DNA of 64,000 bases from Candidatus Hydrogenedentota bacterium (GTDB lineage: Bacteria; Hydrogenedentota; Hydrogenedentia; Hydrogenedentales; JAEUWI01): positions 1 through 64,000 of the forward strand of contig JAHBVV010000007.1 of assembly GCA_019637335.1 (NCBI GenBank), read 5' to 3'. The position numbers and the translations under genes are program-made. Shown in pieces: positions 1 through 47,600 of this stretch. The notes under the pieces were generated by a model, which saw nothing but the letters and a program-made list of their open reading frames with translations, ran no database searches and was not told the origin of the DNA. The number at the start of each line of letters is the position of its first letter. Position 1 is the stretch's first letter.

Positions 1-418
1 GCCGCGTAAGCGCCCCAAACCACCCCCAAATCGCGGGTGCCGCCAGGGGGACTGGCTCCCGCGACAAAAACCACCCCAACCGCGAATGCGCCCCAAACCA
101 CCCCAAAATCGCGGGTGCCGCCAGGGGGACTGGCTCCCGCGACAAAAACCACCCCAGCCGCGTAGGCGCCCCAAACCACCCCAAAATCGCGGGTGCCTGT
201 ACCCGCAGAAAAACGCCCCCCGCGCCACGCGCACCCGCCCCCAGGGACTGCGGCGCCCCATCACCTCAGGTACAAGCAGCCCCCACGCGACCCAAAGCGA
301 GCCCAACCAACCCACAACACCGCCAACCGGCGCGGCTGTCCCGTCGCCGACCAGCCAACCAGCGCCCCAGCCGCGCAAGCGCCCCAAACCACCCCAAAAT
401 CACGAACGCCTGTACCCG
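1..418. repeat. 78-bp tandem repeat with palindromic core
   Basis: This stretch holds no convincing gene. A 78-bp unit repeats, with cores starting at 32, 110 and 188 and a diverged partial copy near 377-418. The core at 32-63 and 110-141 is an imperfect palindrome (arms CGCGGGTGCC and CTGGCTCCCGCG around a GGGGGA loop). The C-rich sequence gives open proline-rich frames on the plus strand that look non-coding. It lies downstream of the decaheme gene and may be a REP-like mobile or structural repeat. Confidence 0.75.
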
Positions 419-545
419 CCCCCTACTCCCCCTACTCCCCCTACTCCCCCTACTCCCCCTACTCCCCCTACTCCACCGCCTCTTCCTCCACCGTCTCTTC
501 CTCCACCGTCTCTTCCTCCACCGTCTCTTCCTCCACCGTCTCTTC
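419..545. repeat. 9-bp and 15-bp minisatellites at the end of the decaheme gene
   Basis: A 9-bp unit (CTACTCCCC) repeats about six times at 419-473. A 15-bp unit (CTCTTCCTCCACCGT on the plus strand) repeats about four times at 480-545. The stop of the decaheme cytochrome gene falls inside the 9-bp array, and the 15-bp array encodes its acidic VEEET repeats. Slippage here would alter the length of the protein tail. Confidence 0.8.
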
Positions 546-3398
546 CACCCCCGCATCCTCCACCTCAGGCGCCGGAGCCGCGATCAATGCCGAGAGCGAC
601 GCTATCCCAGCCGTTCGATTGCTGTGATCCACGTGGTAGTTGTGGCAGATCAGGCAGCTGTCGCCCGCCTTCCCCGGCACATGGCACCGCGCGCAATCTT
701 CCCGGGCTACCGGCTCGAAATTGCTGGTAAACGCAAACTCCCCGGACGTATGCCGCCAGTTGGAGAAGTTCACGCCAATTTCCAGGCCGCCTTTTTCGGC
801 CTTGAAGCTGTCCAGATACGCCATGGCGGGCGCCGTCGGCGTATCAGGCGCCGCGGCGGTATCGCCCGCAGGCTCCTCAGGCGCCGGTTCCGGTTCCGCC
901 CCGGACTCAACCGCGCCTTCCTCTTCCGCCGAGGCGGCCAGCGCCACGTGCAGCCGCGCGCGGCTGTCCTCGATCCACGGGGCGCGGTGGCACTGCGCGC
1001 AATCCATCAGTTTCAGGTGCGGCGTGTGGTTAAACTTGGTAAACTCGCGCTGTTCCGGGCGGCCCTTCCAGTTCACCAGCACCGCCTTCCCACCGCTCAA
1101 ATCCCGCTCGGCGTCGACGGTGTGGCACTTCATGCACGCGCCCACCCCCAGGCCCTGCCGGCGTCCGCTGAGTTCGTCGAAGATCATCGCCGCCGCCCGG
1201 TTCGTCCCGTAACGCGCCGCCGCATAGTCCAGCCACGCCGTCAGGAACGGATCCGCATGGCCCGTGGGCCGGTAATAAAGGGAGGACGGCGTGCGCAGCG
1301 TCCAACGGCCGCCGGACAAGTCAATCGACGCCTCCATCCAATCCTTCACCGAAGACAGATCCCGGAGCCACGCGGAAAACGTCGCCACGGCGTCCGGATC
1401 GGATGGCTCGGCGTCGCTGGCGTCCCCTTCGGTGGAATCCGCCTCCGGTGCCGTTTCCTCCGCATCCGCCCCTTCCTCCGCCTCCGCCGATTCGTCGCCT
1501 CCGCCTGATCGGCCCGCGCCGGCGGCGCCATCGATCAGCGCGCGCCACGAATCGCCGCCAATCTCCTCGCCGCTCCCGGTATCCCGCCAATCCTCGCCAT
1601 CCACCGCGATGTGTTTCTCGAACCAGTCCTTGAAGTCCCGGAAGGCGGCGAAGAACGCGGGCGCCGGGGCACCGGCGGCGTCCTCATCGAGCGCCGCAAA
1701 TTCGGGCAGCCCGGACAACAGCACGTTCCAGGCGCCCGGGTCGGCGCGGTAGCCACTTTCAAGCGCCAGCCAACCGCCCATCTCGACGATGTCCTTACGC
1801 GCCGCCTCGTCCGCGATATCCGCGACGGTCGCGCCCGGCTTGGGGAAACCAAACATGGCGTCGAAGCGGCTCGCCTCCGGCATGTCACCTTCGACCTTCG
1901 CGAGCAACGCCCGCGCGGTCTCGCGCAACCCGCCGCTGTCGCGGTCCATGGCCCCGCCGTAGACCGTTTGAACGCCCGTGAACAGGCGCCCCGCGACCGC
2001 CGGATCCTCGTCGAATACAATCCCGCTCAGGTCGCCGTTGAACTCGTCGAGCAGGGCCAAATCCCGGCCGAACTGATCCATCGCGCCGGGATCGTCCGCA
2101 TGGAGCGCGGAGAGGAGCAGCAGCATGAACGGGGAAACGGGCTTGTCCGCCGTGCGCGGGATCCCGGTCATGCCGGTCTCTTCCTCCACAATATCGTAGG
2201 CGTCGAACTCGATCGACGGAAACGCGAATACCGGAATCCAGGACGATCGCCCCGCGACGATGTTGCTGTTGTGGCACGCCGCGCACATCTCCTCGTAGGG
2301 CCGCAGGGACGTGACCGAGGCGCCGGGCGCTATGTCGTGGCAGGACCGGCAGTCCCCCGGCGCGTGCGCCCGGATTTCTTCGCGCTGGAAATAGTCGCGC
2401 TCGTGGGATGCGTGGTCGTAGATGATGCGCGTGCGGCGCCGGTACGGGTAGTCGTAGCCCTTCGCCGAGGCCACGGTGGAGAACTCCGGGTGGCCGCCGG
2501 CGAAATGGTCGAATTGCTTGACGTGGCACGTCTGGCATTGCTGGCTGTCGAGGAACTTCAGGTCAAATTCCGCGCCGTGATGCTCCCGGTGGCAGGCCGC
2601 GCAGGCCATCTCCCCGCCCGCGCCGGTCTTCACGCCGGGCGAAAGCGACGCCAGCGCGAGCGAAAGGGAACGGCGCGCTTTGAACGGCTCCGCCGACGCG
2701 TCCTCCGTGTGCGACGCCAGCCCATCCGGCGGAAGCGCGTGCGCGAACAGCGCCGTCTCCCCCAGGTCTTCCGTGTGGCATTCGAGACACTGCTGGCTCT
2801 GTGGCGCCCCGACGCCCCCACCGAACGCGGCCTGCACCAGGGTCGCCAGCCCGCCCTCGGCCTTGGCGTGGCAGATATGGCACCCCTCGGCGCCCGATTC
2901 CCGGGTTCTGGCGGACGCGTGCGATGCGGCGTGCTCCATTTCCTCCAGCGCGCCCATCGACGCGCCCTGGTGCGCCGCGGTAAGCGGGCCGGGCGAAAAG
3001 AGCTGGTCCCGCCAGGGGCTGCCGGCCACAAAAAGCACAACGCCGGCGAATGCGGCGCAAATAACGACGCTGACCCGCCCGCGCAACGCCCGAAGGCTGC
3101 GCCGCGGCGTGCAGTGAACCCTTCGGCAGCATACGCCCACGCCATTGACCACGTGCGGCCCGAAATCGGGCGACGCCTGCGTTGGGTCGTCGCACGGCCC
3201 GCCATACTGGTCCGGCCGCGTGCACACCCAGCGATCGCCGACGCGCGCGGGCGCGCACTCGAATCCGTGGTTGCACTTGCCGCCGCGCGTGGGCCCTTTC
3301 GGGCAGGGGCGCCCCTCGGCGGCGAGGCCACAGACCCAGTTTTCGTTGGGCCGGATGTAGGGCCGCTTGTAAATGTCCTTGTCGTGCGTGCCCGCCAT
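468..3398 (-). CDS. membrane-anchored decaheme c-type cytochrome with Cys-rich N-terminus
   Basis: A 976-residue protein with ten CxxCH heme-binding motifs (CHICH, CLECH, CAACH, CQTCH, CRSCH, CAACH, CMKCH, CAQCH, CARCH, CLICH) spread over the part after a transmembrane segment at about residues 109-126. The first 100 residues hold nine cysteines (residues 23, 32, 42, 48, 59, 69, 90, 91, 96) in no heme motif, presumably in the cytoplasm and perhaps metal-binding. A long acidic Ala/Glu linker lies mid-protein and the tail is a VEEET repeat. The ATG at 3398 overlaps the upstream stop (TAATG), so translation is probably coupled. It is the last gene of the cytochrome cluster and likely carries electrons in the periplasm. 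Closest named family is unclear. Confidence 0.85.
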   Translation of the reverse strand: MAGTHDKDIYKRPYIRPNENWVCGLAAEGRPCPKGPTRGGKCNHGFECAPARVGDRWVCTRPDQYGGPCDDPTQASPDFGPHVVNGVGVCCRRVHCTPRRSLRALRGRVSVVICAAFAGVVLFVAGSPWRDQLFSPGPLTAAHQGASMGALEEMEHAASHASARTRESGAEGCHICHAKAEGGLATLVQAAFGGGVGAPQSQQCLECHTEDLGETALFAHALPPDGLASHTEDASAEPFKARRSLSLALASLSPGVKTGAGGEMACAACHREHHGAEFDLKFLDSQQCQTCHVKQFDHFAGGHPEFSTVASAKGYDYPYRRRTRIIYDHASHERDYFQREEIRAHAPGDCRSCHDIAPGASVTSLRPYEEMCAACHNSNIVAGRSSWIPVFAFPSIEFDAYDIVEEETGMTGIPRTADKPVSPFMLLLLSALHADDPGAMDQFGRDLALLDEFNGDLSGIVFDEDPAVAGRLFTGVQTVYGGAMDRDSGGLRETARALLAKVEGDMPEASRFDAMFGFPKPGATVADIADEAARKDIVEMGGWLALESGYRADPGAWNVLLSGLPEFAALDEDAAGAPAPAFFAAFRDFKDWFEKHIAVDGEDWRDTGSGEEIGGDSWRALIDGAAGAGRSGGGDESAEAEEGADAEETAPEADSTEGDASDAEPSDPDAVATFSAWLRDLSSVKDWMEASIDLSGGRWTLRTPSSLYYRPTGHADPFLTAWLDYAAARYGTNRAAAMIFDELSGRRQGLGVGACMKCHTVDAERDLSGGKAVLVNWKGRPEQREFTKFNHTPHLKLMDCAQCHRAPWIEDSRARLHVALAASAEEEGAVESGAEPEPAPEEPAGDTAAAPDTPTAPAMAYLDSFKAEKGGLEIGVNFSNWRHTSGEFAFTSNFEPVAREDCARCHVPGKAGDSCLICHNYHVDHSNRTAGIASLSALIAAPAPEVEDAGVEETVEEETVEEETVEEETVEEEAVE

Positions 3399-4222
3399 TA
3401 CAGGGCCCTCCCCGCGTAGGCGTGCGCGAGCCAGACGTGAACGATGGCGAGCACGAACAACCCGTTGGTCAGGGGGATATGCACGAAGAGCCACGTCTTC
3501 AGGGCCAGCTGCAGGGCATACTGGTAATCCAGGCGGTCCTTCTCGCGCACGTACTCGGCGATGCGCTGCAAAATGGCCTTTTCCTCGTCGTTCAGGTAGC
3601 GGTACTGGTCTTCGATTTCCGCGAGCATCCGGTTGAGCGGCGGGGCAATCTCAAACAGGTGCCGCAGCGTGTAGCGGGGACCCGTGAAGAAGTCGCGAAG
3701 GCGCGCGGTGTAGAAGTTGACAATGGTGCTCGACCGGGTCTCGGCGACCGATCCCTCGGCGAGCATCTCCACCGCGGTCCGGATCTTGCGCCGGTGTTCC
3801 GGCAGGCGCTCAAACACCACCTCCCCGCCCCGCGCGGTCAGGCGGCGCGGGAGAATGCGGGAGATGGCGAGGCCGGCGAAACCGCTGATGAGCACGATGA
3901 AGTAGAGGGCGGCCAGCGAACGCTCCAGGGCGCCGGTGGGGATCTCAAAGCCCGCATGAAAAAGATAGGGCACAATGGTGAACGCGCCGATATAGATGTG
4001 GGCCTGGAGCCAGAACCGGCTCGGCCCCAGCGGCGGCACGGGAAACTTCTTGCGCACATTGTACAGCGCCAGAAACACCATCACGCCGAGAAAGAACCAC
4101 CCGGAAAGCATGCCCGGATTGCGGAGGGTCACGCGGTAACCGTCGAAGAAAATAAGAAAGACCGCAGCCGCCGCCAGCAATAGGGCGAGCGCCGTCAGTC
4201 GTCTGCGGGCGTAATACTTCAC
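3398..4222 (-). CDS. polytopic membrane protein, putative b-type cytochrome subunit
   Basis: A 274-residue protein starting at GTG 4222, which overlaps the upstream stop as GTGA. Hydrophobic segments fall near residues 8-24, 38-58, 75-95 and 100-122, with a further one near the C-terminus. Histidines sit in or beside the helices (HIYIGAFTIVPYLFHAGF, and HIPLTNG and HVWLAHAYAG near the end), as expected for ligands of b-type heme, but I cannot assign a family. A charged soluble stretch of about 110 residues separates the helical parts. Between a four-cluster ferredoxin and a decaheme cytochrome, it is best read as the membrane module passing electrons between them. The heme is inferred. Confidence 0.75.
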   Translation of the reverse strand: MKYYARRRLTALALLLAAAAVFLIFFDGYRVTLRNPGMLSGWFFLGVMVFLALYNVRKKFPVPPLGPSRFWLQAHIYIGAFTIVPYLFHAGFEIPTGALERSLAALYFIVLISGFAGLAISRILPRRLTARGGEVVFERLPEHRRKIRTAVEMLAEGSVAETRSSTIVNFYTARLRDFFTGPRYTLRHLFEIAPPLNRMLAEIEDQYRYLNDEEKAILQRIAEYVREKDRLDYQYALQLALKTWLFVHIPLTNGLFVLAIVHVWLAHAYAGRAL

Positions 4223-6024
4223 CGTTTCAAAAACCTGGCCAGTTCGTCCACGTTCTGCATGTTCACGCGTTGCAGGGCATCGTGGGGGCACGCCCGAACG
4301 CACGCCGGGCCGCCGGTATGGTCTACACAGAAATCACACTTCGTCGCCTTGTAGATCGGCGCGCCCGCCGCCTCGCCCGACGTCGCGATACGGAATTCGC
4401 CGCGCCGGTTCCGCACCGTGATCATGCGGATGGCGTCGTAGGGGCAATTGCTGAAGCACGTCGCGCAGCCGATGCAGGTGTCTTCGTTGATGACCACCTG
4501 CCCTTCGAGGCTCTCGCGGGAAATCGCGCCCGTGGGGCACCCGATCATACACACCGGGTCGGCGCAATGCATGCACGAATTGGCAACCATGATGTTGCCG
4601 TGGATCGGGCCATGGCGCACGAAACGCGGATTGTTGTCGTGCGCGGCGGCGCACCCGCGAACGCAGTCGTCGCACCGCGTGCAGCGATCCAAATTGATCA
4701 GCATGGTGCGCGTGCCGTTCAGCACCCGGTTCTCCGCCAGAAACTCGAAGAGTCCCGCGCCGATGTCGTCCCGGAGCGTGCTATCCACCTCGGTATTGCC
4801 CGTCCGGATATCCTTGCTGCGGTAGCGCGGGAAATTCGGCTGCTCCTTGAGGAGCACGGGCAGCACATACTTCTCCACGAGATGGGTCGGAATCGTCAGG
4901 ATGTGGGCGTAGCCGATAGCGCGCAGGCTGTGCTGAAACGGGATCGGGTGGTTCGGGTGCTGCCAGTTGTAGAGCACCTCCTTGATCCCGAAGACCTGCC
5001 CGCTCGCCAGGTAGTTCAACGTGCGGTGCCCGTGTCCGTAGCGTTTGCTCTCGCGCGCGAAGCCCGCCCGAACCACATGCACGCCGTTGGGATAATCGCC
5101 CTCCTGGACGATAATCTCCTCCTGCTCGATGACGTGCGTCTTCTCTTCGGCGCTCAGCCCGATATACTCCGACGACCACTCGTCGTATTTGCCGTAGGTG
5201 GTGAACTGCACCTGGTCGAGGACATCATCCGGCAGGTTGTTAAAATGCGGGATCGCCTCCAGCGCGCCCTTGAGAGAGCGCTTGCGATACATATCGTCAA
5301 TGTGCCGCGCGATGCCTTCATCCGCTTCCATAAGATCGCGCAGGCCCTGCCAGCGAATCTCCAGCAGGCGGGTCTCGGCGGACGCCACGATCGAGAGCTC
5401 CCGGGGCATGCGGTAGATGGCGCCGATCTCGCCAAAGAAGGCGCCGGGCCGCAACGGGGCCGTCTGGTACTGGGCCGGGTCAAGCACCGCGGCCAGCTCC
5501 TTCGCGTCCAGCACGACGCCCTGCTCGTCGAGGGATCTGGCCTTGGGGTTCGGCGCCCGGTACTCGGCGGGCGGCGGAAAAAGCATGTCGCGGACGCGCC
5601 GCCCGAAGGACCGCACCACCCCCACATGGACCCGTTCCCGGTGCCCGAGCAGGGCCGCGGGCAGGTCCGGCTGCAGCACCGCGCGAAGCTCGCCTTCGAG
5701 CACAAAAAAGGCGGAGTTCCCGTAGTCATCCTTGCGGACCGCGAACTCGCCGGGACGGTACCGCCGGATCCGCGCGTCATTCTTCAGGATGCCGTGAATG
5801 GAGACGGGCACGCCGAACGAGACGAACTGCGGTTTGCGGGCCTCTTCGAGGTCCGCGCAGATCGATCGGAACGGATCGTAGCGCAGCACGCCCACGATAT
5901 CCGCATCGGACATTTCCCCGAAGGGGCGCGCCCATCGGGTAAGCCGCCGCTCCCCCGGAACGCCGGAGGGAGCGGCGGCTACGGCATCATCGAATGCGGA
6001 TGTTGCGCTTTCGGACTTCAGCAT
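4219..6024 (-). CDS. cyclic-nucleotide-binding-domain / four-cluster ferredoxin fusion
   Basis: A 601-residue soluble protein. The N-terminal two thirds contain two cNMP-binding-like modules (about 65-240 and 255-385; for example a FFGEIG element in the first and YLASGQVFG in the second). From about residue 440 there is an HybA/DmsB-like iron-sulfur part with four Cys groups (CTRCDDCVRGC, CMHCADPVCMIGC, CIGCATCFSNC, CDFC then CVRAC), enough for four [4Fe-4S] clusters. There is no signal peptide, so it is presumably cytoplasmic. Its stop overlaps the start of the membrane gene. Fusing a ligand-sensing domain to an electron-wire subunit suggests that electron flow is gated by a nucleotide or another small ligand; that is inference. 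Confidence 0.85.
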   Translation of the reverse strand: MLKSESATSAFDDAVAAAPSGVPGERRLTRWARPFGEMSDADIVGVLRYDPFRSICADLEEARKPQFVSFGVPVSIHGILKNDARIRRYRPGEFAVRKDDYGNSAFFVLEGELRAVLQPDLPAALLGHRERVHVGVVRSFGRRVRDMLFPPPAEYRAPNPKARSLDEQGVVLDAKELAAVLDPAQYQTAPLRPGAFFGEIGAIYRMPRELSIVASAETRLLEIRWQGLRDLMEADEGIARHIDDMYRKRSLKGALEAIPHFNNLPDDVLDQVQFTTYGKYDEWSSEYIGLSAEEKTHVIEQEEIIVQEGDYPNGVHVVRAGFARESKRYGHGHRTLNYLASGQVFGIKEVLYNWQHPNHPIPFQHSLRAIGYAHILTIPTHLVEKYVLPVLLKEQPNFPRYRSKDIRTGNTEVDSTLRDDIGAGLFEFLAENRVLNGTRTMLINLDRCTRCDDCVRGCAAAHDNNPRFVRHGPIHGNIMVANSCMHCADPVCMIGCPTGAISRESLEGQVVINEDTCIGCATCFSNCPYDAIRMITVRNRRGEFRIATSGEAAGAPIYKATKCDFCVDHTGGPACVRACPHDALQRVNMQNVDELARFLKR

Positions 6025-6046
6025 GCGCGCATCACTATCCCGCGGA

Positions 6047-7087
6047 TCACTTGTATACTTTGCCGCGGTATTCCGACGGGAGTTTCCCCGCGGCGGCGGT
6101 GATGGCGGAGCCGAAGCTGCCCTTGTCGGACTCGATGGTCTTGGCGACTCCGCGGATGGCGTTGGCGGCCTTCATGTACTCCGCTTCATTTCCCGTCGCC
6201 ACCTTAACCTTGCCGCCGTCCATGGGAACCTGGCTCAGGACCTTGTCCATCCCGCCGAGGCCCTTGAGATCGTCGTAGGCCTTCTGGGCGCGCTCGCCCA
6301 TCGCGGTGAGGTAGGTCCCCTCCTCGGTGGCCTTGGCCAGGCCGCGCAGCGCGAACTCGAGGTCCAGCGTCTTGCCGACCACGTAGAAGATCGCCTTGGT
6401 GTCCTTGCTGGTATCCTTGTTCTCGCCCTGTTCCTTGCGGAGCGCGGGATCGTCGTTCAGGAAATTGTGGCGGACTTCGCCGTGGCTCCACGCCACCAGC
6501 TCAAATTCGCTGCCGGCCGGGTGCAGCCCCTTGTTGACCAGGTCTTCGCGCGGAACGGTGTGGCACTGAAAGCAGTTCATCGCCAGCGTGTAGATGTCGT
6601 TGGTGAGGCGCATGCCCTCCGCCTCCGACTTCTTCAGGCGCTCCGCGCGGGTGGGAACGGCCTCGGCGTTCTGGTGGAGGTCCATCCAGCCCTTCGCGGG
6701 GCCGTGGCAGCGCTGGCAGGAGACGCCCATCACCGTGGACGCGCGGCCGCCGGGCTCCTTGGCCGACTGGGTATAGTGGCACTGCACGCACTCGTTGTTG
6801 CGCCGGATACTGCCGCTCATTCCGAGACGCTCCAGCACGGCCTGGGCCTCATCGCGCAGGTGCAGTTCGTCGTAGGTCTTCTTGTGGACCGACTCCGACC
6901 ACGCGTTTACCGCGTTCTCGTGGCACTGCGCGCACTGCGCGGCTTCGTCCTCGACGATTTTCGACGGTTCGTAGGTCAACACATCGTCGTTGGCAAGCGC
7001 GGGCGCGGCGCAAAGGGCCGCGGCGGCGGCGGCGGCGATGGCGCCGCTCCGCAGCGTCAACTGGAACCTGTTCAGCATTGCTTTCAT
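6047..7087 (-). CDS. tetraheme c-type cytochrome (c554-like)
   Basis: A 346-residue exported protein with a signal peptide (cleavage near residue 33, after ALA) and four CxxCH motifs (CAQCH, CVQCH, CQRCH, CFQCH). Spacing and the VMGVSCQRCHGPAKGW element resemble cytochrome c554 and related multiheme carriers. The C-terminal 130 residues are heme-free, helical and Lys-rich. ATG 7087 is preferred over the adjoining GTG 7090; a GGGAG lies about nine bases upstream. It sits 22 bp before the CNB/ferredoxin gene in the cytochrome cluster and likely works in the periplasm. Confidence 0.85.
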   Translation of the reverse strand: MKAMLNRFQLTLRSGAIAAAAAAALCAAPALANDDVLTYEPSKIVEDEAAQCAQCHENAVNAWSESVHKKTYDELHLRDEAQAVLERLGMSGSIRRNNECVQCHYTQSAKEPGGRASTVMGVSCQRCHGPAKGWMDLHQNAEAVPTRAERLKKSEAEGMRLTNDIYTLAMNCFQCHTVPREDLVNKGLHPAGSEFELVAWSHGEVRHNFLNDDPALRKEQGENKDTSKDTKAIFYVVGKTLDLEFALRGLAKATEEGTYLTAMGERAQKAYDDLKGLGGMDKVLSQVPMDGGKVKVATGNEAEYMKAANAIRGVAKTIESDKGSFGSAITAAAGKLPSEYRGKVYK

Positions 7088-7126
7088 CACTCTGTACTCC
7101 CGTGTTTCACCCGAGCCCGACCCGGC

Positions 7127-8425
7127 TCAGGCATCCAGTTCGATTGCGGTTCTGGGCGTGGCGATACAGGGCAGGCAAAAGCCTTCCTGCAACCCGCTGA
7201 AGGCCGGCTGCACACCCGCGTACGCCACTTCCCCGCTCTTGAGCGCGGTCAGGCAGCATCCGCACTTGCCCTGGCCGCACGCGTACTTGATCTTCTTCTC
7301 TTTGTACTTCGCCGACTTCGCCGCCGCGCGTATGCTCTTCTCGCCCTTCCACGTGATGGACTTCCCGCTGGCGCCGTACGTAATGCTCAGCGCCTGGCCC
7401 GCTGCCGCGGCGGCGGGCGCCGGCCCGGTGGGTTCGCTGAAGGCCTCCCAGTGGATCTTGTCTTTGGGCGCCCCCCACGCCATCAGATCGCGCTCCAGGC
7501 CGACCATCATCGGCTCCGGCCCGCAAATGTAGTACGCGTAGTTGTTCCCGGGAAGAACTTGCTTCAACAGCCCCGCATCCGCGCGCCCCTTGCGGTAAAC
7601 GATACCGCTTTCCATAACCGCGCCGTCTTCCACCCCGGCGGGCATCCCGGCGCTGAAGCATATCGTGACGCGCGCGTTCTGAAGGTGGCTTGCCGCGTAT
7701 TCAAAGTTGGGCAGCATGACGAGGTCGTCCGGATTCCGGACGCCGAAAAAAATCCAGACCTCGCGGTTGCTCTTGCGATCGATCAAAGTGTTGCACATCG
7801 ACAGGATCGGGGTGACGCCCACGCCGCCCGCCACAAGCACCACCGGCGACTCGTGATCGGGATCAAGATAGAAATCGCCACTGGGCGCCTGCACGTCGAT
7901 CAGGTCGCCTTCCTTCACCTGATCGTGCAGGAAACTGGAAACCAGGCCCGGGGGAACATCGGGCTGATCGGGCGGGGCCGGCACCTTGCGAACGCTGATC
8001 CGGTAGTAGCGCGGATTCGGGCTGTCCGACAGGGAGTAGCAGCGGGTCTCTTCGACAGTCTCGCCGGGGCTCTCGGGATCCGGGATATTGAAGCGGAACA
8101 TAAGAAACTGGCCCGGCTTGAATTCCGGCAGTTTCTTCCGGTCGTGCGGGTAGAAGTAGAACGAGCAGATATCCCCCGCCTTGTTCTCAATGACCTTCTT
8201 CCGGACTTCGAACTTGCGCCATCCCGTCCAGGAGAGCTTGCTGGTCTCGGCGCGGCCGAGCTGGGTCTCGGCGCGCTTTACGCGAAGCTGCCATTCCCGG
8301 AGCTCCAGAGCGCGCTGAACCTGCTGGGCGCGGGCGCGCTGGACCGTGCCATACACGAGCACGGGCACCTGCAACAGCAACCCCGCAAAGACCAGGAGGC
8401 CCAATGCCAGTGCGACCAGTTCCAA
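7127..8425 (-). CDS. membrane-anchored flavin reductase with C-terminal 2Fe-2S domain
   Basis: A 432-residue protein with one N-terminal membrane helix (about 1-25), a short coiled stretch, an FAD-binding barrel (RCYSLSDSP motif), an NAD(P)-binding fold (GGVGVTPILSM, YYICGPEPMM) and a C-terminal plant-type [2Fe-2S] ferredoxin domain (CGQGKCGCC, then a later Cys in GFCLPC). The order matches NqrF/Hcr-like ferredoxin reductases. It probably oxidises NAD(P)H and feeds electrons to the cluster. The start is TTG 8425 with a GGGAG about eight bases upstream. It lies 92 bp after the barrel gene. Confidence 0.88.
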   Translation of the reverse strand: MELVALALGLLVFAGLLLQVPVLVYGTVQRARAQQVQRALELREWQLRVKRAETQLGRAETSKLSWTGWRKFEVRKKVIENKAGDICSFYFYPHDRKKLPEFKPGQFLMFRFNIPDPESPGETVEETRCYSLSDSPNPRYYRISVRKVPAPPDQPDVPPGLVSSFLHDQVKEGDLIDVQAPSGDFYLDPDHESPVVLVAGGVGVTPILSMCNTLIDRKSNREVWIFFGVRNPDDLVMLPNFEYAASHLQNARVTICFSAGMPAGVEDGAVMESGIVYRKGRADAGLLKQVLPGNNYAYYICGPEPMMVGLERDLMAWGAPKDKIHWEAFSEPTGPAPAAAAAGQALSITYGASGKSITWKGEKSIRAAAKSAKYKEKKIKYACGQGKCGCCLTALKSGEVAYAGVQPAFSGLQEGFCLPCIATPRTAIELDA

Positions 8426-8517
8426 CCGTATTCTCCCTTCCGTGGTTTATGTGCGCGGCTTCCATTCCAGCCGCCCACATTCGCAACGCCCCCTCCCGCC
8501 CGGCGCGGGATTGAACC

Positions 8518-10389
8518 TTAGAACTGTACGACAAATTCGGTTCGGATGCCGCGCTTGTCGTCCAGCGATTCGCGCGACACGTAGTAGGCGTCAACGCGCC
8601 AAACATAGCGGTTGCCGATCGCCTGCTGGTAGCGGGCGAGCGCGCCAAAGCGGCCGCGGTTGTCGGACCCGTCGAAGTCATCGCGCCCGCCAACTTCGAG
8701 CAGCAGCTGCTTTCTGGTCTCGTCAAAAAACTTCTGGTAGCCGATCGCGCCGCCGAAGCTGTCGTGGTCGGTGGTGTTTTCAATGGGGGCGCCCACGAAG
8801 CCGATGCCCGGCGAGGCGAAGAGCACGCCGACCGGCCCGAGGGGCCCGCCCAGGGCGGGATCGCGCGCGACGGACTGGTAGCGGTCGTTCGCAACGAACA
8901 AATTGGCGTAAACGAGGTCGTAGGAATAGGGGAGCGTGTAGGACGATTGGGCCAGGAAGAGGCTGCCCGAAGTCGAATGGATGGTGTCCTCGCCGCTGGT
9001 CCGTTCGGAATGGTTGAAGCGAAACGCGGTGCTGACGTGCCCGATGCGCTGCACGAAGCTGAGCCCCACGTTGAAGAGATCGCCGCCTTCAAGCTGGATC
9101 GAGCGATTGTTCAGCCGGACCCGCGTCACACTGTCGTTGACGTAGGCCAGATCGAAATCCATGGTCGTCTTGGAGAAGTCGGTGCTGGTGAACAGGCCGA
9201 ACAGGTGCGCGCTCTGGCGGCGGCGGTTGTTCGGGCCGACGCCGCGGTGCAGCTCGTCCCAGGCCCAGAGCGCCGTGATGCGCGTGTTGTTCGCGTTGCC
9301 GAGATGCAGGTTGTTCCGCGTCAGGCCGATCGCGTCCACCCGGTCGTTGATCATGATGCCGGTCTGGAAGGATATGGGCTGCCGCCCGATGGCGAATCCG
9401 ATGTCCATCGCGCCGGTGTCGTGCGGGTCGAGGTTGGGGAAAATCTCGCCGAAATCGCCCTCGATGAAGAAGCTGTCAATATCCAGGTCGCCGCGGAGAT
9501 ACCAATCTTCCTTGTTGGTCAGGTTGGGCGTTTGCCAGCGGTAGCCGTTGAAGTTGCCGCTGTGATCAAACGGGCGGAAGGAAAGGACGATACGCTCGGT
9601 GGGCGTGAGGGCCAGGTTGAAGAACATATCGAGCCGGGTTACCAGCTCCTCCACGGTGGCCTCCCCGCGATCGATCGGCGGGCCGGCCACATCCGTGATG
9701 GGCGGCAGCCGGTTGCCCGTCTGCTCGTACTGCCACGCGGTCCGCAGCGTGCCGTAGACGAACAGGGAGGGCTGCCAGACGGCGCCGGTGGGAATCTTGA
9801 TGCCGGGCTGGATATTGCCGTGGTTCAGGAATTCGTCGCCGAAGAGGTGGAGCGTCTTCGGGCGCGCCGGGAAGGGGCGCACCTGGCTTGTGAGGATCTC
9901 CTCCGGAAAGGTGACCCGGAGCAACTCGCGGTTGCGCGCGGTCGCCTCCACCGGGCCGAACCCTTCCAGCCCCGACTCGAGATCCGCCTTCAAATCGGCG
10001 GGAATATCGACGCCGGCCCAGACTTCGCTGTCGTAGAGACCGCGGAAGCGGATCACCGCATTGAGCCCGTTGATCATATCGTAGGTGACGTTTCGTTCGA
10101 GCGCGGTGGTGGCGTCGACGCCGCGCAGATCCTCGCGCAGCGCGGGGCTCAGGTACGTCCAGATCCGTCCGGCGGGCGTCTCGGGGCTGTCGGCCCCGGC
10201 CTGAAGCTTCTGGAGCAGCCGTTCGAAGCTGACGATATCTTCCACGGCAAACTGGGCGTAGGCCTCGGTTTGCAGCGGGATCGGCTTGCGCGTGAGTTTG
10301 CTTTCCTTGTCCGCGTGCGCCGTGCCGGCGGCCGCCAGAAGGACGGCCGCGGCCACCCAGGCGCTTGCAAGTGCGTTTCCTGCTTTCAT
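8518..10389 (-). CDS. outer-membrane beta-barrel protein
   Basis: A 623-residue exported protein. The signal peptide is clear (cleavage after AHA near residue 27). The rest alternates hydrophobic and polar residues in strand-like runs with many aromatic girdle residues, and ends in Phe (FVVQF), the usual outer-membrane assembly signal. I do not recognise a specific family; it broadly resembles alginate-export or long porins. ATG 10389 is chosen because GGAGGGAG sits just upstream, whereas the longer frame lacks a ribosome site. Placed between multiheme cytochromes, it may be the porin of an outer-membrane electron conduit, but it could also be a substrate porin. Confidence 0.8.
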   Translation of the reverse strand: MKAGNALASAWVAAAVLLAAAGTAHADKESKLTRKPIPLQTEAYAQFAVEDIVSFERLLQKLQAGADSPETPAGRIWTYLSPALREDLRGVDATTALERNVTYDMINGLNAVIRFRGLYDSEVWAGVDIPADLKADLESGLEGFGPVEATARNRELLRVTFPEEILTSQVRPFPARPKTLHLFGDEFLNHGNIQPGIKIPTGAVWQPSLFVYGTLRTAWQYEQTGNRLPPITDVAGPPIDRGEATVEELVTRLDMFFNLALTPTERIVLSFRPFDHSGNFNGYRWQTPNLTNKEDWYLRGDLDIDSFFIEGDFGEIFPNLDPHDTGAMDIGFAIGRQPISFQTGIMINDRVDAIGLTRNNLHLGNANNTRITALWAWDELHRGVGPNNRRRQSAHLFGLFTSTDFSKTTMDFDLAYVNDSVTRVRLNNRSIQLEGGDLFNVGLSFVQRIGHVSTAFRFNHSERTSGEDTIHSTSGSLFLAQSSYTLPYSYDLVYANLFVANDRYQSVARDPALGGPLGPVGVLFASPGIGFVGAPIENTTDHDSFGGAIGYQKFFDETRKQLLLEVGGRDDFDGSDNRGRFGALARYQQAIGNRYVWRVDAYYVSRESLDDKRGIRTEFVVQF

Positions 10390-10477
10390 GGACTCCCTCC
10401 GCTCGGGGTATGTTGGCGGCCCCATCCCAGGCCGGCGTTGATGTTGTCCGCGTTCGCGAGTTTCGCGGGCGCGGGCG

Positions 10478-12424
10478 TTATTCGACCGTGATCTGGAACT
10501 GCAACTCATCGAGCACGCTATGGCCTCCCGCCGTGCCGAACACGTAGCGGAGATCCTCCTCGCGGCCCTGATCCATCAAATCCTCGACGTACTTCCGGCT
10601 GTGCCGGTTGCCATCGCGGTCAACGACATCGCCGACGCCGAAGCGAACGCCGAGCGCGACTTCGTAGGCGCTCATGCCGTAGTCGAAGCCCACATCCTTG
10701 ATCTCGTTGACGAGATTGATCGGCACCATGCCCGTAATCAAGCGCACGTCGACATTGTAGGTTCCGGGCCCGGTCAGTTTCTTGCGGCCCACCTTGTAGG
10801 TCGGCCACTTGCTGTCGAGCGGATTGATGATCCTGCGGTGGATGCGGGCCGGCCCCGGGCGCCCGGTCAGCGTGGCCGCGTTCGGCGACGGGCGCAGGAA
10901 CGGCAGCGGGCTCGGCGAGAAGTTAATCGCGAGGACCTGCTCCCGCTCGCCGCCGCGCTCGTTCACCGTGAGGAACTGGGACTGCAGCGAGAACAGGTAC
11001 GGGTCGCGGGGCAGCTCCCGGTTGTGCACGTACAGCGAGTGCAGGTCGCGCACGTCAAAGTTCGGATCGAGATCGCCGGAGATAAACACCCGCTCTCCCG
11101 CCCCGTCGGTAACCTCGACCTCGAGATACACCACGCGCTCGGCGATGAAACCGGTCGGGACGCTGTGGCCGTCCATCAGGTTCTTCACCTCGATGTCGAA
11201 TTCGATGCCCGACTTGGCCGAAGCCTTCTTGAGCTTGTATTCCCCGATGCCATAGCCCGCCCGCAGCACCTTCAGGCGCTCTTCGTGGTATTCCTCGAGC
11301 AGCTCGAACTGATCGTCCAGGAAGTCCCGCGCCGCATACCGCTCGTCGATATTCTCCCAGCGCGGCGGGAACAGCGTGCCCTTGCCCTCCGCGGCGCGCG
11401 CGGGCTCGTCCTCCTCCTCGAACTGTTCGGTACCCCAACCCGCGCCGTAATCAAAGGTAAGCCACTCGCGCATCGTGGCGAACTGGGCCATTTCGTCGTT
11501 GTGCGGGTAAAGTCCCGGGTGGATCACCGAGTGATCCGGGCCCGCCATGCGGTGGTTGGTCTTCTTGCGCGGCTCGCCGACATAGTTGGCGCCGATCTTC
11601 GCGATCTGCATGATCTCGTAGTTCGTTTCCTTGTCGCCCAGGAAGACGCCCGGCTCCTTGCCCATGTGGCAATCCTGGCACGTCACGCCATTGCGCGCGG
11701 CCGGGCTCTGCTTGAAATCGCTGAACGCTTCTTCGAGCCGGAATCCGTTGAGCAGGTTTACGTCGTGGCAGGCGCCGCAAAACGCCGAATCCACGATCTG
11801 ATAGAAGGGCTCGGTTGTCGCGTGCACCTTGCCCTCGCCGAATTTATCGTCGATTTCCTGGCCGAACTTCTCGTGGAATTCCGGGTCGCCCGTCGGCCCG
11901 TAGATCGCCTGGATCAGCGGTCCGTCGTCAAGCGCGAAGCGGCCGCTGATCTTGCCGAAGGGCTTCGTCACGCGGTGGCACGCCACGCAGGTAATCCCCT
12001 CGCGCGAGGCGGGCGTGCGATCAATATTGCTCATGAAAATATCTTCTTCTATATTCATGCCGATCGGGGTATGGCAGCGAATACAGAAGTCGCCATTGGT
12101 GCCGTTGGTGAGCTTGAGGATCTTCGCGTGCATCGCGTTGAAGACCGGGCTCAACTGCGCGTAGGCGTGGGGCGAAACGGCCCACTCCCGGTAGTGGTCC
12201 GGGTGGCACTGCTTGCACTCGCTCGCCGACGGGTAGTACGGCTTTCCGTCGCCCTTGTCGTAGATGGCCTCGTGCACGTTTCGCCCGTCCGCGCCCGCCT
12301 CGTACGGGGCCGCGTCCTGGGCCGGGGCCGACAGCGCCCACACGGCGCACCATCCGAATGCCAACATCCGGGACATCCGCCCAGGGCGCCGTCCCCACAG
12401 ATCCGTCATCACGCCACTTCTCAT
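10478..12424 (-). CDS. pentaheme c-type cytochrome
   Basis: A 648-residue exported protein with five CxxCH motifs (CKQCH, CIRCH, CVACH, CGACH, CQDCH) in the first 280 residues and a heme-free C-terminal half rich in strands. The N-terminus has a twin-arginine-poor but hydrophobic signal ending near APA. The head resembles cytochrome c554 / multiheme oxidoreductases; the tail (DGHSVPTGF element) occurs in related uncharacterised multiheme proteins. GGAGG precedes the GTG/ATG pair at 12427/12424. It is the first gene of the seven-gene cluster, 88 bp upstream of the barrel gene, and is likely periplasmic. Confidence 0.85.
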   Translation of the reverse strand: MRSGVMTDLWGRRPGRMSRMLAFGWCAVWALSAPAQDAAPYEAGADGRNVHEAIYDKGDGKPYYPSASECKQCHPDHYREWAVSPHAYAQLSPVFNAMHAKILKLTNGTNGDFCIRCHTPIGMNIEEDIFMSNIDRTPASREGITCVACHRVTKPFGKISGRFALDDGPLIQAIYGPTGDPEFHEKFGQEIDDKFGEGKVHATTEPFYQIVDSAFCGACHDVNLLNGFRLEEAFSDFKQSPAARNGVTCQDCHMGKEPGVFLGDKETNYEIMQIAKIGANYVGEPRKKTNHRMAGPDHSVIHPGLYPHNDEMAQFATMREWLTFDYGAGWGTEQFEEEDEPARAAEGKGTLFPPRWENIDERYAARDFLDDQFELLEEYHEERLKVLRAGYGIGEYKLKKASAKSGIEFDIEVKNLMDGHSVPTGFIAERVVYLEVEVTDGAGERVFISGDLDPNFDVRDLHSLYVHNRELPRDPYLFSLQSQFLTVNERGGEREQVLAINFSPSPLPFLRPSPNAATLTGRPGPARIHRRIINPLDSKWPTYKVGRKKLTGPGTYNVDVRLITGMVPINLVNEIKDVGFDYGMSAYEVALGVRFGVGDVVDRDGNRHSRKYVEDLMDQGREEDLRYVFGTAGGHSVLDELQFQITVE

Positions 12425-12539
12425 CACGACATCCTCCTCAGACCACGTTGCCGGGCCGGCCGCCGCGGAAAGCCACGATCAACCGTGCGCCGAGTTCCGT
12501 TTCGGCGCCAGACAGCATGGTTACACTGCAACACCCTTC

Positions 12540-13060: not shown

Positions 13061-13744
13061 TTAGCGCGAGATCGCCAGCCAGTAGAAGACCGCCCCGCAA
13101 AGCGCCGCCACCGCCAGAAAACTGAGAAAGAACACCAGCCCCGCGCGGGAGCGAACCCGGACCGGGGCCTCCTCCGGCGCCATCGCGGCGTCCGCGTTCC
13201 CGAAGGCGCCGTGGCAGCGCGTACAACGCTTGCTGAAGACATCGTTCCCCTCGCCGCAATGCGGGCAGATGATGATGGTGTCGTTACCGTGGTCGGACAT
13301 TTCCCCGGCCATGGTCGCGCCCGCCATCGTGGACGCCATGGTCCCCACAGCCATACCCAGCCGCTCGAGCGCCTCCTCCGCGCTCTTTGAAGAAGGCTTC
13401 TTTTCGAGCACGCGGCTCCAGGCGTCAATCGCCTTCTCGGTGCGGCCCGCGCCCTCGTGCACCTTGGCGAGCTGCTCGAGCAAGGTGACATCGTCCGGGG
13501 ACTCGCCGATAGCCTTCACGAGGATCGCCTCCGACTCGGCGTACTTGCCCAACCGGTAATACGTCGCGGCGAGGTACCGCTGCACGGGAACCTGATCCGG
13601 CCACGCCTCCTGAAGGACGAGCAGTTCGGCCAGGGCGGACCGGTAGTCCCAGGCGTTATAAAGCTTCTTGGCCAGACGCCACCGCTGCTTGTGGTCGTCC
13701 GGGTGCGTTTCCAGGTATGCGCGGATCTCGTCAATGTCGGCCAT
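13061..13744 (-). CDS. TPR protein with zinc ribbon and C-terminal membrane anchor
   Basis: A 227-residue protein. Residues 1-130 form TPR-like repeats (for example YRLGKYAESEAILVKAI). A zinc-ribbon-like CPHCGEGND...CTRCHG motif follows near residues 160-178, then one transmembrane helix at the C-terminus (LVFFLSFLAVAALCGAVFY). The CTRCH sequence matches CxxCH by chance but there is no signal peptide, so heme binding is unlikely. A good promoter lies upstream at 13812-13840. It is divergent from the Ser/Thr kinase gene. Probably a cytoplasmic adaptor anchored to the membrane; the partner is unknown. Confidence 0.8.
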   Translation of the reverse strand: MADIDEIRAYLETHPDDHKQRWRLAKKLYNAWDYRSALAELLVLQEAWPDQVPVQRYLAATYYRLGKYAESEAILVKAIGESPDDVTLLEQLAKVHEGAGRTEKAIDAWSRVLEKKPSSKSAEEALERLGMAVGTMASTMAGATMAGEMSDHGNDTIIICPHCGEGNDVFSKRCTRCHGAFGNADAAMAPEEAPVRVRSRAGLVFFLSFLAVAALCGAVFYWLAISR

Positions 13745-44662: not shown

Positions 44663-47600
44663 GTGGCACTGACGATTGGGGAAACAGTTGAGCAACTTCA
44701 CGCGGCCCTGCGCGATTATATCGAAGCCACGTATCACATTGGCCACCCATCGCTGGTCGAACAGAGACGGCAGTTACTTCAGCAACCAGGCGTAATCTCT
44801 CAACGTCCGTATATTGAGAGTACACCACGGTACAGGATTGGCGAGCCGTTTGAGAATCTTGGCCTGCCAACTCCTGTTCTCGATGTATTCAGCTCGTTGG
44901 CAACCGCTTCAGACGGACCGATCTTGATCCACAATCCGCCCTATCACCACCAGGCCAAAGCCATTCAGAAATCCTTGCTGGAAAACCGGAGTCTGGTTAT
45001 AACAACAGGTACGGGTTCCGGTAAGACGGAGTGTTTTCTTCTTCCGATTCTTGGGAAATTGGCGCAAGAAGCTCATGAACAGGGTCGGGCTTTTGGCAGC
45101 ATGGCGGCAACCCGCGCGCTTGTCCTTTATCCCATGAACGCTTTGGTAAACGATCAACTTGGGCGACTACGCGTTCTGTTCGGAGATGATCGCATCGTGG
45201 ACCAGTTTGTTGACTGGTCGGGCCGACCGGCGCGCTTCGCTCGCTACACAAGTCGAACGCTTTATCCGGGTGTCAGGACTGTTGATAAGGATCAGTTGCG
45301 GCTGAAAGCCATCGGTGACTTTTATGTACGATATTTAGAACTTGCACAGGGGCCAGATTCCGAGGAGCAACGAGCCGCCAAACGTATCGTGGACCAACTC
45401 AAGACTCGTGGTAAATGGCCAGCAAAGCCGGACCTACTGGCTTGGTATGGACGCAAGGGTATGCGTTGGCAGGATACCAAAACTGGAGAGTTTAAGCGTT
45501 GTGTGACGCTTGCCAACGATCCAGAACTTCTGACGCGTCACGAGGTTCAAGAAACTCCGCCAGACATACTTGTCACGAACTATTCAATGCTTGAGTACAT
45601 GCTCATGCGGCCAATAGAACGACCCATCTTTGACCATACCCGAGACTGGCTAGAACAGAATCCCCACGAGCGTCTTCTGTTGGTTCTGGATGAAGCCCAT
45701 CTCTACCGCGGCGCAGCTGGCGCTGAGGTCGCGCTCTTGATCCGTCGGTTGCGGGCGCGACTCAATATCCCGCAGGATCGACTGCAGGTCATTTGTACTA
45801 GCGCCAGCTTCTGTGACCCTGCTTATGCGTCGCAATTCGGTGCTCAATTGACTGGTAAAGACCGCCGCGAATTCGAAACAATCGAGGGTGAACTCGCTCT
45901 CAGTGAAGCGGCTGGAAAGGGAAGTTCTCGCGATGCCGCCGTGCTCGCTGATTTGGATCTCGATAGCTTCTATTCCGGTGAAACTGATGAATCGCGCGTG
46001 GCGGCGGTTCAGTCCCTGCTTGACTACCGAGCCGTCAATCCCAAAAGTGACCTTCCCTCCACGCTCCATAGTGCCTTGAATGAGTTCCCGCCAATGGGGG
46101 AACTCATTAACCTAACCATGAAGGCAGCTGAACCCGTTTCCGAGTTGCACGGCAAGATTTTTCCCGACGCTGAGCCGGAAGCGGCAAACAGGGCAGTTAC
46201 GGCTCTGGTGGCTATGGGAAGTCTTGCACGAAAGACATCCAACACACCGGGTTTGTTGCCTTGCCGTGTTCACGGTTTCTTTCGAGGTCTAGCGGGACTC
46301 TGGGTCTGCATGGACCCCGGATGTAGCGCGTTGCCGGAACACCGCCGCGATGGCCCTTGTGGCAGGCTCTACAGCCAGCCGCGTGATATCTGCACTTGTG
46401 GATCTCGGGTGCTCGAACTCTACACCTGCCGCAATTGCGGAGCGGCATATGCCCGCGCATACACTAACAATATTCTTGAACCTGATTTCCTATGGGCGGA
46501 GCCCGGTGGCGAGTTTCGCACCCACACCGGTATGTTTGGTGAACTAGAACCTCTGGACATGCTTCTCGATGCGCCAGTGCGCAATGACATCGAGCCAGCC
46601 GATTACGACCTGATCACTGGACGGCTAAACCCAGGAGCTTTGGGAACCCGATCTCGTCGAGTGTTCTTACGGGGGGAACGTATTTCAGCAGGAGATGGTG
46701 ATGTGGACACCGGCCACACCGCGCAACGGGGTGAGTTTGTACCTTGTGCGGTATGCGGTGAATCTGCGGCGTATGGTCGGTCCTCTGTACAAGACCATCA
46801 GACCAAAGGCGATGAGCCATTTCAGGCACTCATTAGTAAACAGATTCAGGTACAGCCGCCAAACGCTACGCCTCCAACGCGCCTCGCCCCCCATCGCGGA
46901 CGAAAAGTCTTAATCTTTTCCGATTCTCGTCAGACGGCTGCACGCCTCGCCCCAAATCTTCAAACCTATTCGACAAGGGATGTCTTACGGCCGCTGATCG
47001 TGGTTGGCTTTGATCGCTTGCAGCGGTCGGCCAGTCTCGCTACATTCCTTTCGCTTGAAGATCTTTACCTAGCGGCACTCATTGCTGCCGAACTTCTGGG
47101 CGTGAGACTCAGACCCGAACTTAAGGGCGGTGAGAGTTTTCATGCGCGAGATAAAATCGAGGAAAGACTAGGTGCCGGCGCGTTGTTCGATGATAATCGC
47201 ATGCTTGAACTGTTAATGGAAATGCGCGGTGAAACTCCACCGCAGTTTTTGCTTCGGGGTATGGCATCATGCCTTACCCACCGATACTACAGCTTGGAAT
47301 CATTCGCGCTTGCATCGATTGTTGAACGCGCCTCGCACCGTGAAGCAATCTCCGATCTGCCCGACATCCCAGAAGTGGCGACGACCCCAGAGCAGAAACT
47401 AGCGCTGGCGCGTTTGTGGTTACGAAGCTGGCATCGATCCGGGTTCTGGCTCAGCCGGATGCCATCATCCTGGTGGATGAATGAAGTGAAACCGCACTCC
47501 GGCAAATTCGCAACAATAGAGAATTGGCTTGACACCAAAGATGCCCGGAAACTGTTTAACCGCGATTGGCTGGAAGCTCTCCTGCACCGTTTTACGGAAC

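What the first reader, a model, noticed from the sequence alone, without database searches (positions are those of the whole stretch)
468..12424. Seven-gene multiheme electron-transfer cluster including an outer-membrane barrel
Nineteen CxxCH hemes in three cytochromes (5+4+10), a barrel, a flavin/2Fe-2S reductase, a four-cluster ferredoxin with nucleotide-binding domains and a membrane subunit are co-directional, with the last three genes translationally overlapped. This would allow electrons from NAD(P)H to pass the inner membrane, periplasm and perhaps the outer membrane. It matches no operon I know (not Mtr, not DMSO reductase).
Basis: partly seen in the sequence, partly recalled or inferred. 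Interest (0 to 1): 0.7.

Follow-up and report, generated by a model that had tools for sequence, protein, structure and literature searches.

The report
Cyclic-nucleotide-linked envelope electron pathway
Seven neighbouring genes encode what looks like a wire that carries electrons from NAD(P)H through the inner membrane and periplasm towards the outer membrane; the same seven-gene block recurs in distant bacterial phyla, and its iron-sulfur protein carries a binding site for a cyclic-nucleotide signal, which hints at a respiratory wire with a built-in switch.

Summary
Seven co-directional genes carry 5+4+10 = 19 CxxCH motifs, a putative outer-membrane barrel, a FAD/NAD/2Fe-2S reductase, a four-cluster [4Fe-4S] protein and a membrane protein. 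No other ORF in the window has two or more CxxCH. The last three genes overlap by 4 and 1 nt. The organism is a Candidatus Hydrogenedentota.

The complete order A-B-C-D-E-F-G recurs in 11 loci from Hydrogenedentota, Planctomycetota and a gammaproteobacterial class. Shorter versions occur in Verrucomicrobiota and, more distantly, on Sphingobium plasmids. E has 16 conserved cluster cysteines; F has four invariant histidines in two H-x13-H pairs (diheme b); G is a membrane-anchored decaheme. E-F-G stay together in 37 of 38 testable loci, while two unrelated barrel/multiheme modules are joined to them. No Mtr, Ext, DMSO-reductase or NapC model is met.

A class III cyclase lies within 10 kb in 4 of 11 lineages (0.12 expected). 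I propose an NAD(P)H-driven, cyclic-nucleotide-controlled envelope electron pathway. Outer-membrane crossing, acceptor, direction and gating are inferred, not shown.

The parts
10478..12427 (-). Gene A: exported pentaheme c-type cytochrome with a heme-free C-terminal domain; candidate periplasmic or outer-membrane-side cytochrome partner of B
   Evidence: 5 CxxCH; Cytochrome_C554 Pfam hit 6e-10; all five CxxCH and six further His conserved in 22-23 of 23 relatives; nearest solved structure is cytochrome c552 5ze8, E 2e-17; adjacent to B wherever both are seen
8518..10389 (-). Gene B: putative outer-membrane beta-barrel, signal peptide MKAGNALASAWVAAAVLLAAAGTAHA (start ATG 10389)
   Evidence: No Pfam/NCBIfam/PDB relative; C-terminal Phe in 18/18 relatives; strand-rich but low-confidence model, about 17 strands from residue 208 on; 19-member family
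7127..8425 (-). Gene C: N-terminally membrane-anchored FAD / NAD(P)H / plant-type 2Fe-2S reductase; proposed electron entry
   Evidence: NAD_binding_1 2e-16, Fer2 1.5e-6, FAD_binding_6 1e-4; flavohemoprotein-reductase-like, below the equivalog cut-off
6047..7090 (-). Gene D: exported tetraheme cytochrome of the c554 type; proposed periplasmic carrier
   Evidence: 4 CxxCH; Cytochrome_C554 58.8 bits against cut-off 20.8; profile hits cytochrome c554 1bvb at 1.5e-14; four heme sites plus H139, H190, H208 in 37/37
4219..6024 (-). Gene E: cytoplasmic protein, cyclic-nucleotide-binding domains (about 80-420) fused to a four-[4Fe-4S] ferredoxin (about 440-601)
   Evidence: cNMP_binding 1.6e-21, Fer4_7 1.6e-11; 16 cluster Cys in 39-40 of 40, cassette residues E199 and R208 in 40/40; FGE..PR cassette aligns with PKA regulatory subunit
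3398..4222 (-). Gene F: membrane diheme b-type cytochrome (predicted), overlaps E by 4 nt and G by 1 nt
   Evidence: Exactly four invariant His (H75, H89, H248, H262) in two H-x13-H pairs, 37-38 of 38; helical model pLDDT 80; overlaps
468..3398 (-). Gene G: Cys-rich cytoplasmic N-terminus, one transmembrane helix, periplasmic decaheme cytochrome
   Evidence: 10 CxxCH; all ten CxxCH and nine further His conserved in 34-36 of 36 relatives; Cytochrome_C7 6e-7; conserved N-terminal Cys-rich stretch

Best explanation
The seven genes encode one NAD(P)H-driven electron pathway across the cell envelope, under allosteric control by a cyclic nucleotide. Steps: (1) membrane-anchored C takes electrons from NAD(P)H through FAD and a 2Fe-2S cluster; (2) they pass to the four [4Fe-4S] clusters of cytoplasmic E; (3) the diheme b protein F carries them across the inner membrane; (4) the anchored decaheme G receives them in the periplasm; (5) tetraheme D and pentaheme A carry them to the outer membrane, where A works with barrel B so that electrons reach an acceptor in or beyond the outer membrane; (6) cAMP or cGMP binding to E switches or tunes the flow. 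Supported by sequence and comparison: the cofactor sites, the conserved order, the stable E-F-G core, and the intact binding cassette with a linked cyclase in several lineages. Inferred: the direction, the D to A to B route, the crossing of the outer membrane, the acceptor, and the gating itself.
For: Order A-B-C-D-E-F-G complete in 11 loci: window, Hydrogenedentota L024, eight Planctomycetota loci (L078, L082, L083, L088, L089, L101, L102, L103) and L104 from the class of a gammaproteobacterial MAG; E-F-G adjacent in 37 of the 38 loci not cut off by a contig end. Cofactor ligands near-invariant: 16 Fe-S Cys in E, four His in two H-x13-H pairs in F, all heme sites in A, D and G. In Sphingobium an NAD(P)H-type flavoprotein (Pyr_redox) is fused in frame to the cNMP + [4Fe-4S] protein, next to F-like (E 1e-24) and G-like decaheme (E 1e-36) genes: independent support for NAD(P)H entry. 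A second, unrelated barrel plus a 1300-aa decaheme LVIVD protein adjoins the same core in Verrucomicrobiota, L104, Sphingobium and, in part, L081. cNMP cassette E199/R208 in 40/40; class III cyclase within 10 kb in 4 of 11 lineages, expected 0.12, P about 4e-6; CpdA/SpdA-like phosphodiesterase gene next to G in Sphingobium.
Against: No Hydrogenedentota locus seen has the cyclase next door: the window genome has one class III cyclase, elsewhere on contig C1. In the window lineage the cassette Arg is followed by Glu, not the usual Ala/Thr, so ligand binding is not certain. B is not proven a barrel, and at about 430 conserved residues it is smaller than MtrB-type conduits. C is missing from at least eight loci that have E-F-G (L079, L084, L092-L096, L100), so NAD(P)H may not be the only donor. 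One planctomycete locus (L091) has E without F or G on an 8-kb contig. No ion-pumping subunit is present. No experiment on any homologue was found.
Confidence: 0.5

Rival explanations
1. A periplasmic reductase system: electrons from NAD(P)H reach the periplasm by C-E-F-G-D, cytochrome A is the terminal reductase of a small soluble compound (an oxyanion, NO or another), and B is a solute porin that lets this compound in. No electron crosses the outer membrane.
For: A is weakly similar to ExtKL of the Geobacter selenite/tellurite operon (4e-11) and to solved cytochrome c552 5ze8 (2e-17). ExtI, the Ext porin, is preferred by its authors as a selenite channel, not an electron conduit (PMC5877670). 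D is c554-like with three invariant spare His for four hemes, so one heme may be open.
Against: A keeps six conserved spare His for five hemes, which fits bis-His electron-transfer hemes. A second unrelated barrel/decaheme pair is joined to the same E-F-G core in other lineages, which is easier to explain by outer-membrane electron transfer than by one solute.
Confidence: 0.28
2. Electron uptake: the same parts run inward, taking electrons from an extracellular donor such as Fe(II) or a partner cell and delivering them to ferredoxin or NAD(P)+.
For: Porin-cytochrome systems of Fe(II) oxidisers run inward (PioAB/MtoAB, discussed in PMC6344600). Sequence gives no direction.
Against: Reduction of NAD(P)+ from such donors is uphill and the cluster has no coupling subunit. 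The lineages that carry it are generally regarded as heterotrophs (own knowledge).
Confidence: 0.1
3. The cNMP domains of E are structural relics and the neighbouring cyclases are there by chance; the pathway is an ordinary, unregulated electron chain.
For: The second cNMP domain of E looks degenerate; no cyclase adjoins the cluster in the four Hydrogenedentota genomes.
Against: E199 and R208 are kept in 40/40 sequences; cyclase linkage in 4 of 11 lineages against 0.12 expected, with different sensor domains (FHA, Tll0287-like); phosphodiesterase next to the Sphingobium version.
Confidence: 0.3

Closest known systems
MtrCAB / PioAB / MtoAB porin-cytochrome conduits
   Same: Barrel plus multiheme cytochromes in one cluster; proposed electron route through the outer membrane
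   Different: B has no PF11854 (MtrB_PioB) match and profile-profile probability 0.5%; A has 5 hemes, not 10; inner-membrane part is NAD(P)H/Fe-S/diheme b, not a quinol-oxidising CymA
Geobacter extHIJKLMNOPQS (selenite/tellurite) cluster
   Same: Porin-like protein beside a pentaheme cytochrome; further multihemes and a b-type cytochrome
   Different: ExtKL model scores 42 bits against a cut-off of 250; Ext has a Rieske protein and bc1-like cytochrome b (PMC5877670), here a four-cluster ferredoxin with cNMP domains and a different diheme protein; no flavin reductase is listed for Ext
DmsB/HybA/HydN-type four-cluster ferredoxins of the Mo-enzyme (CISM) complexes
   Same: E's C-terminal part is of this type (DmsB 65.6 bits)
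   Different: No Mo-subunit, no NrfD/DmsC anchor in the cluster; fused to cNMP-binding domains
Cytochrome c554 (Nitrosomonas)
   Same: D: four hemes, PF13435 over cut-off, profile hit to 1bvb
   Different: Equivalog cut-off far from met (36.7 against 400); no HAO in the cluster
Putative porin-multiheme clusters of bog Verrucomicrobia (He et al. 2017, PMC5615132)
   Same: Novel porin next to multiheme genes in Verrucomicrobiota, proposed for extracellular electron transfer
   Different: Those are described with an eight-heme periplasmic cytochrome; no cNMP/Fe-S protein is mentioned in the passages read; sequence identity with ours not tested
NADPH oxidase / ferric reductase membrane cytochromes
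   Same: Works like: FAD/NAD(P)H reductase feeding two bis-His hemes in H-x13-H pairs across a membrane
   Different: No Ferric_reduct Pfam hit for F; electrons would pass a ferredoxin first and go on to a decaheme, not to O2 or Fe directly; no significant fold match

Membership tests
MtrB/PioB barrel family (PF11854) | Pfam match of the barrel | tested here: not met
   No match in any of 19 members at E 1; hhalign against 9 MtrB proteins probability 0.5%
MtrA/DmsE decaheme (TIGR03508) | Model over cut-off, ten hemes | tested here: not met
   A 30.0 and D 20.5 bits against 192.2; 5 and 4 hemes
Ext pentaheme ExtKL (NF040886) | Equivalog score over 250 | tested here: not met
   42.3 bits
Ext cluster | Rieske ExtO and bc1-like ExtP beside the cytochromes | tested here: not met
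   No Rieske or cytochrome b family hit among the seven proteins
CISM Mo-enzyme complexes (DMSO reductase type) | Molybdopterin catalytic subunit and NrfD/DmsC anchor | tested here: not met
   None of the seven proteins matches such a family
NapC/NirT/CymA quinol dehydrogenases | Membrane-anchored NapC-type protein | tested here: not met
   A matches PF03264 only over 212-256 at 25.2 against 24.1 bits, napC_nirT 20.4 against 310.6 bits; A looks exported, not anchored
Cytochrome c554 domain (PF13435) | Pfam gathering score | tested here: met
   D 58.8 and A 40.4 against 20.8 bits
Cyclic-nucleotide-binding domain (PF00027) | Pfam gathering score and phosphate-binding cassette with Glu and Arg | tested here: met
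   76.5 against 27.5 bits; E199, R208 in 40/40
Cyclic-nucleotide-binding domain (PF00027) | Binds cAMP or cGMP | not testable with these tools
   needs a binding assay
Diheme b cytochrome (b561/cytochrome b/NOX type) | Two bis-His hemes: H-x13-H on two helices | tested here: met
   Four invariant His only, spacing 14 and 14, in helical segments; heme binding itself not testable here
Prokaryotic cytochrome b561 (PF01292) | Pfam gathering score | tested here: inconclusive
   No hit for the window's F; distant Sphingobium F 22.1 against 30.1 bits; 4o6y cytochrome b561 Z 7.6 among unrelated helical rows
Phosphate-selective porins O and P (PF07396) | Pfam match | tested here: not met
   No match in 19 members; hhalign probability 0.3%
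Outer-membrane beta-barrel | Closed antiparallel barrel, C-terminal aromatic, signal peptide | tested here: inconclusive
   C-terminal Phe 18/18 and signal peptide; strands predicted but pLDDT 30

The most novel reading that the evidence does not exclude
A previously undescribed, widespread class of envelope-spanning electron pathway whose inner-membrane unit (flavoprotein, cNMP-binding four-cluster ferredoxin, diheme b, decaheme c) is switched allosterically by cAMP or cGMP: a cyclic-nucleotide-gated electron conduit, with interchangeable outer-membrane barrel/cytochrome modules.
Probability: 0.35. Interest if true: 0.85.

Novelty: new variant of a known kind. Interest (0 to 1): 0.64.

Why it matters
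Known respiratory wires are regulated mainly at the level of expression (own knowledge). Here the electron-carrying protein itself carries a conserved cyclic-nucleotide site, with cyclase or phosphodiesterase genes beside it in several lineages, so allosteric control of electron export becomes directly testable. The block's marker protein occurs in about 9% of 392 Planctomycetota genomes sampled, a phylum for which the searches found almost no described extracellular electron-transfer system, and a relative sits on plasmids of culturable Sphingobium, so the idea can be tested in a laboratory host.

Tried and rejected
Fold of F: pLDDT 80, but no Foldseek match under E 0.5 and only middling Z values for helical bundles; family assignment left open. 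B and F profiles against PDB sequences: nothing. B against MtrB, Porin_O_P and the verrucomicrobial barrel by hhalign: no relation; this cannot exclude remote kinship, since MtrB and Porin_O_P do not find each other either. A simple hydrophobic-alternation score did not separate B well from non-barrels. LVIVD decaheme in the window genome: none. A cyclase next to the window cluster: none. Literature: ten searches found no paper on this cluster; only open-licence PMC is held. A-like proteins on Shinella, Nitratiruptor and other plasmids cover at most 63% at 23-27% identity and were not taken as members.

Full report
What is there. The window is the start of contig C7 of a 7.16-Mb genome; its close relatives in the genome collection are titled Candidatus Hydrogenedentota. 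Seven genes run on the - strand from 12427 to 468. I call them A to G in order of transcription. CxxCH counts are A 5, D 4, G 10; no other ORF in the 64 kb, in any frame, has two or more. Gaps shrink along the cluster from 82-92 nt to 22 nt, and E/F and F/G overlap by 4 and 1 nt, so E, F and G are probably made together.

What each part is. A: exported pentaheme cytochrome of c554 type with a heme-free C-terminal half; best solved relative is cytochrome c552 5ze8. B: exported, heme-free, no known family; 18 of 18 full-length relatives end in Phe and the low-confidence model is strand-rich, so an outer-membrane barrel is likely but not proven. C: one N-terminal membrane segment (sequence), then FAD, NAD and plant-type 2Fe-2S domains. 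D: exported tetraheme of c554 type. E: cyclic-nucleotide-binding domains followed by four [4Fe-4S] clusters, no export signal (sequence). F: membrane protein in which just four His are invariant, H75/H89 and H248/H262, two H-x13-H pairs, the classic layout of two stacked bis-His b hemes (the rule itself is established knowledge). G: Cys-rich N-terminus, one transmembrane segment, then ten hemes.

It is one conserved unit. Full-length E is present in 4 of the 68 genomes of the order that were searched, 35 of 392 Planctomycetota, 2 of 369 of the class of a gammaproteobacterial MAG, and in Verrucomicrobiota. Of 40 loci with E, 11 show the complete order A-B-C-D-E-F-G. E-F-G are adjacent in 37; two loci (L034, L099) are cut by a contig end, and one (L091) truly has E without F or G on its 8-kb contig. 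F is hidden in some rows of the first layout by a display rule. A and B are neighbours wherever both are seen. In a tree of E the four Hydrogenedentota sequences form one clade (100/100), beside the Verrucomicrobiota and inside a mostly planctomycete tree. All Fe-S cysteines of E, the four His of F, and the heme sites and most spare His of A, D and G are conserved, so these are working electron carriers, not decaying genes.

Two outer-membrane modules on one core. In Verrucomicrobiota A and B are missing; instead a divergent operon has D, an 807-819-aa protein ending in Phe, and a 1300-aa decaheme protein with LVIVD repeats. Relatives of that pair stand beside the complete seven-gene cluster in L104 (decaheme 45% identical) and, in part, beside the core in planctomycete L081. 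A distant version on Sphingobium plasmids has E-like, F-like and G-like genes (E-values 4e-59, 2e-25, 2e-35) and, divergently, a D-like tetraheme, the same second barrel family (1e-103) and the same decaheme. B and this second barrel family show no relation. That one inner-membrane core is found with two unrelated barrel/multiheme pairs is my main reason for preferring outer-membrane electron transfer to a solute porin plus periplasmic reductase; it is still inference.

Where electrons enter. C fits an NAD(P)H donor. In Sphingobium C is absent but an NAD(P)H-type flavoprotein (Pyr_redox_2/3) is fused to the front of the cNMP + [4Fe-4S] protein. Two different flavoproteins feeding the same protein argue for flow from NAD(P)H into E. 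At least eight planctomycete loci lack C; six of these, closely related, have an FHA-cyclase gene beside D, so another donor is possible there.

The cyclic-nucleotide link. E's first domain has the cassette FGEIGAIYRMPRELSIVA, aligned by phmmer to the PKA regulatory subunit cassette FGELALMYNSPRAATVVA; E199 and R208, which in known domains hold ribose and phosphate (own knowledge), are kept in 40/40. Class III cyclases are rare in these genomes (1-4 each), yet one lies within 10 kb of E in 11 of 22 genomes. Counting one genome per lineage: 4 of 11 lineages, 0.12 expected, P about 4e-6. The pattern was noticed first and tested afterwards on the same loci, with a distance chosen after seeing them, so the P value is indicative only. 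The cyclases differ in their sensor part: FHA in Planctomycetota, Tll0287-like in Verrucomicrobiota L030. In Sphingobium a CpdA/SpdA-like phosphodiesterase gene adjoins G (below equivalog cut-offs). In the window's own genome one class III cyclase exists, unlinked, among several cNMP-binding proteins.

How it most likely works. NAD(P)H to C to E to F to G to D to A/B to an acceptor at or beyond the outer membrane, with E as the point where a cyclic nucleotide switches the flow. Shown by sequence: cofactor sites, membership of one conserved unit, intact cassette. Inferred: direction, order D-A-B, outer-membrane crossing, acceptor, gating. No ion pump is encoded, so it may serve redox balancing or acceptor reduction rather than direct energy conservation.

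What is known. No tested family fits: MtrB/PioB, MtrA, ExtKL, Mo-enzyme complexes and NapC fail their models. The Ext cluster is the nearest in plan (porin beside pentaheme) but has a Rieske/bc1-like core (PMC5877670). He et al. described novel porin-multiheme clusters in bog Verrucomicrobia (PMC5615132), with eight-heme cytochromes; whether any are the second module here was not testable. No paper on this cluster was found, within open-licence PMC only.

Caveats. Most loci are from MAGs; L035 is a 7.4-kb contig and could be misbinned, but L104 lies on a 736-kb contig and several planctomycete loci on contigs of 6-9 Mb. Genomes of the search collection are unnamed, so isolates could not be named.

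Noticed in passing
window 13061-13744 (-): TPR protein with a zinc-ribbon-like motif and C-terminal membrane segment, upstream of A; a 40% identical gene stands in the same place in Hydrogenedentota L027 (1966-2697), but it was not seen in the other loci.
   Followed up: partly
window 1-560: Contig end made of near-identical short repeats and CTCC/CTTCC runs; the last codons of G are a VEEET repeat that runs into this region, so the true end of G and anything downstream may be lost to assembly.
   Followed up: no
L083, L101, L102 (A) and L097 (D): Tandem duplicates of A (three planctomycete loci) and of D (one locus) inside the cluster.
   Followed up: no
L034 1059-3209; L131 11650-13449; L093 5454-7217: FHA-like domains turn up repeatedly: inserted in E of one planctomycete (by eye), at the N-terminus of G in Sphingobium (by eye and a weak Yop-YscD_cpl hit; the spot of the Cys-rich domain elsewhere), and in the neighbouring cyclase, hinting at Ser/Thr-phosphorylation input as well.
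   Followed up: partly
L030 844-4746, L104 14122-17964, L131 5714-9703: A conserved roughly 1300-aa decaheme protein with C-terminal LVIVD repeats, next to an unclassified barrel, shared by Verrucomicrobiota, a gammaproteobacterial class and Sphingobium plasmids; no paper found that holds LVIVD, multiheme and cytochrome together.
   Followed up: partly
L131 1-450 and beyond (NZ_CP020539.1 794671-800949), L130 2686-4365: A 6.3-kb hypothetical gene beside the Sphingobium cluster, together with a ShlB/FhaC-type secretion gene, suggests a two-partner-secreted surface protein linked to the multiheme genes.
   Followed up: no
window 44663-50215 (+): 1850-aa ORF, not examined.
   Followed up: no
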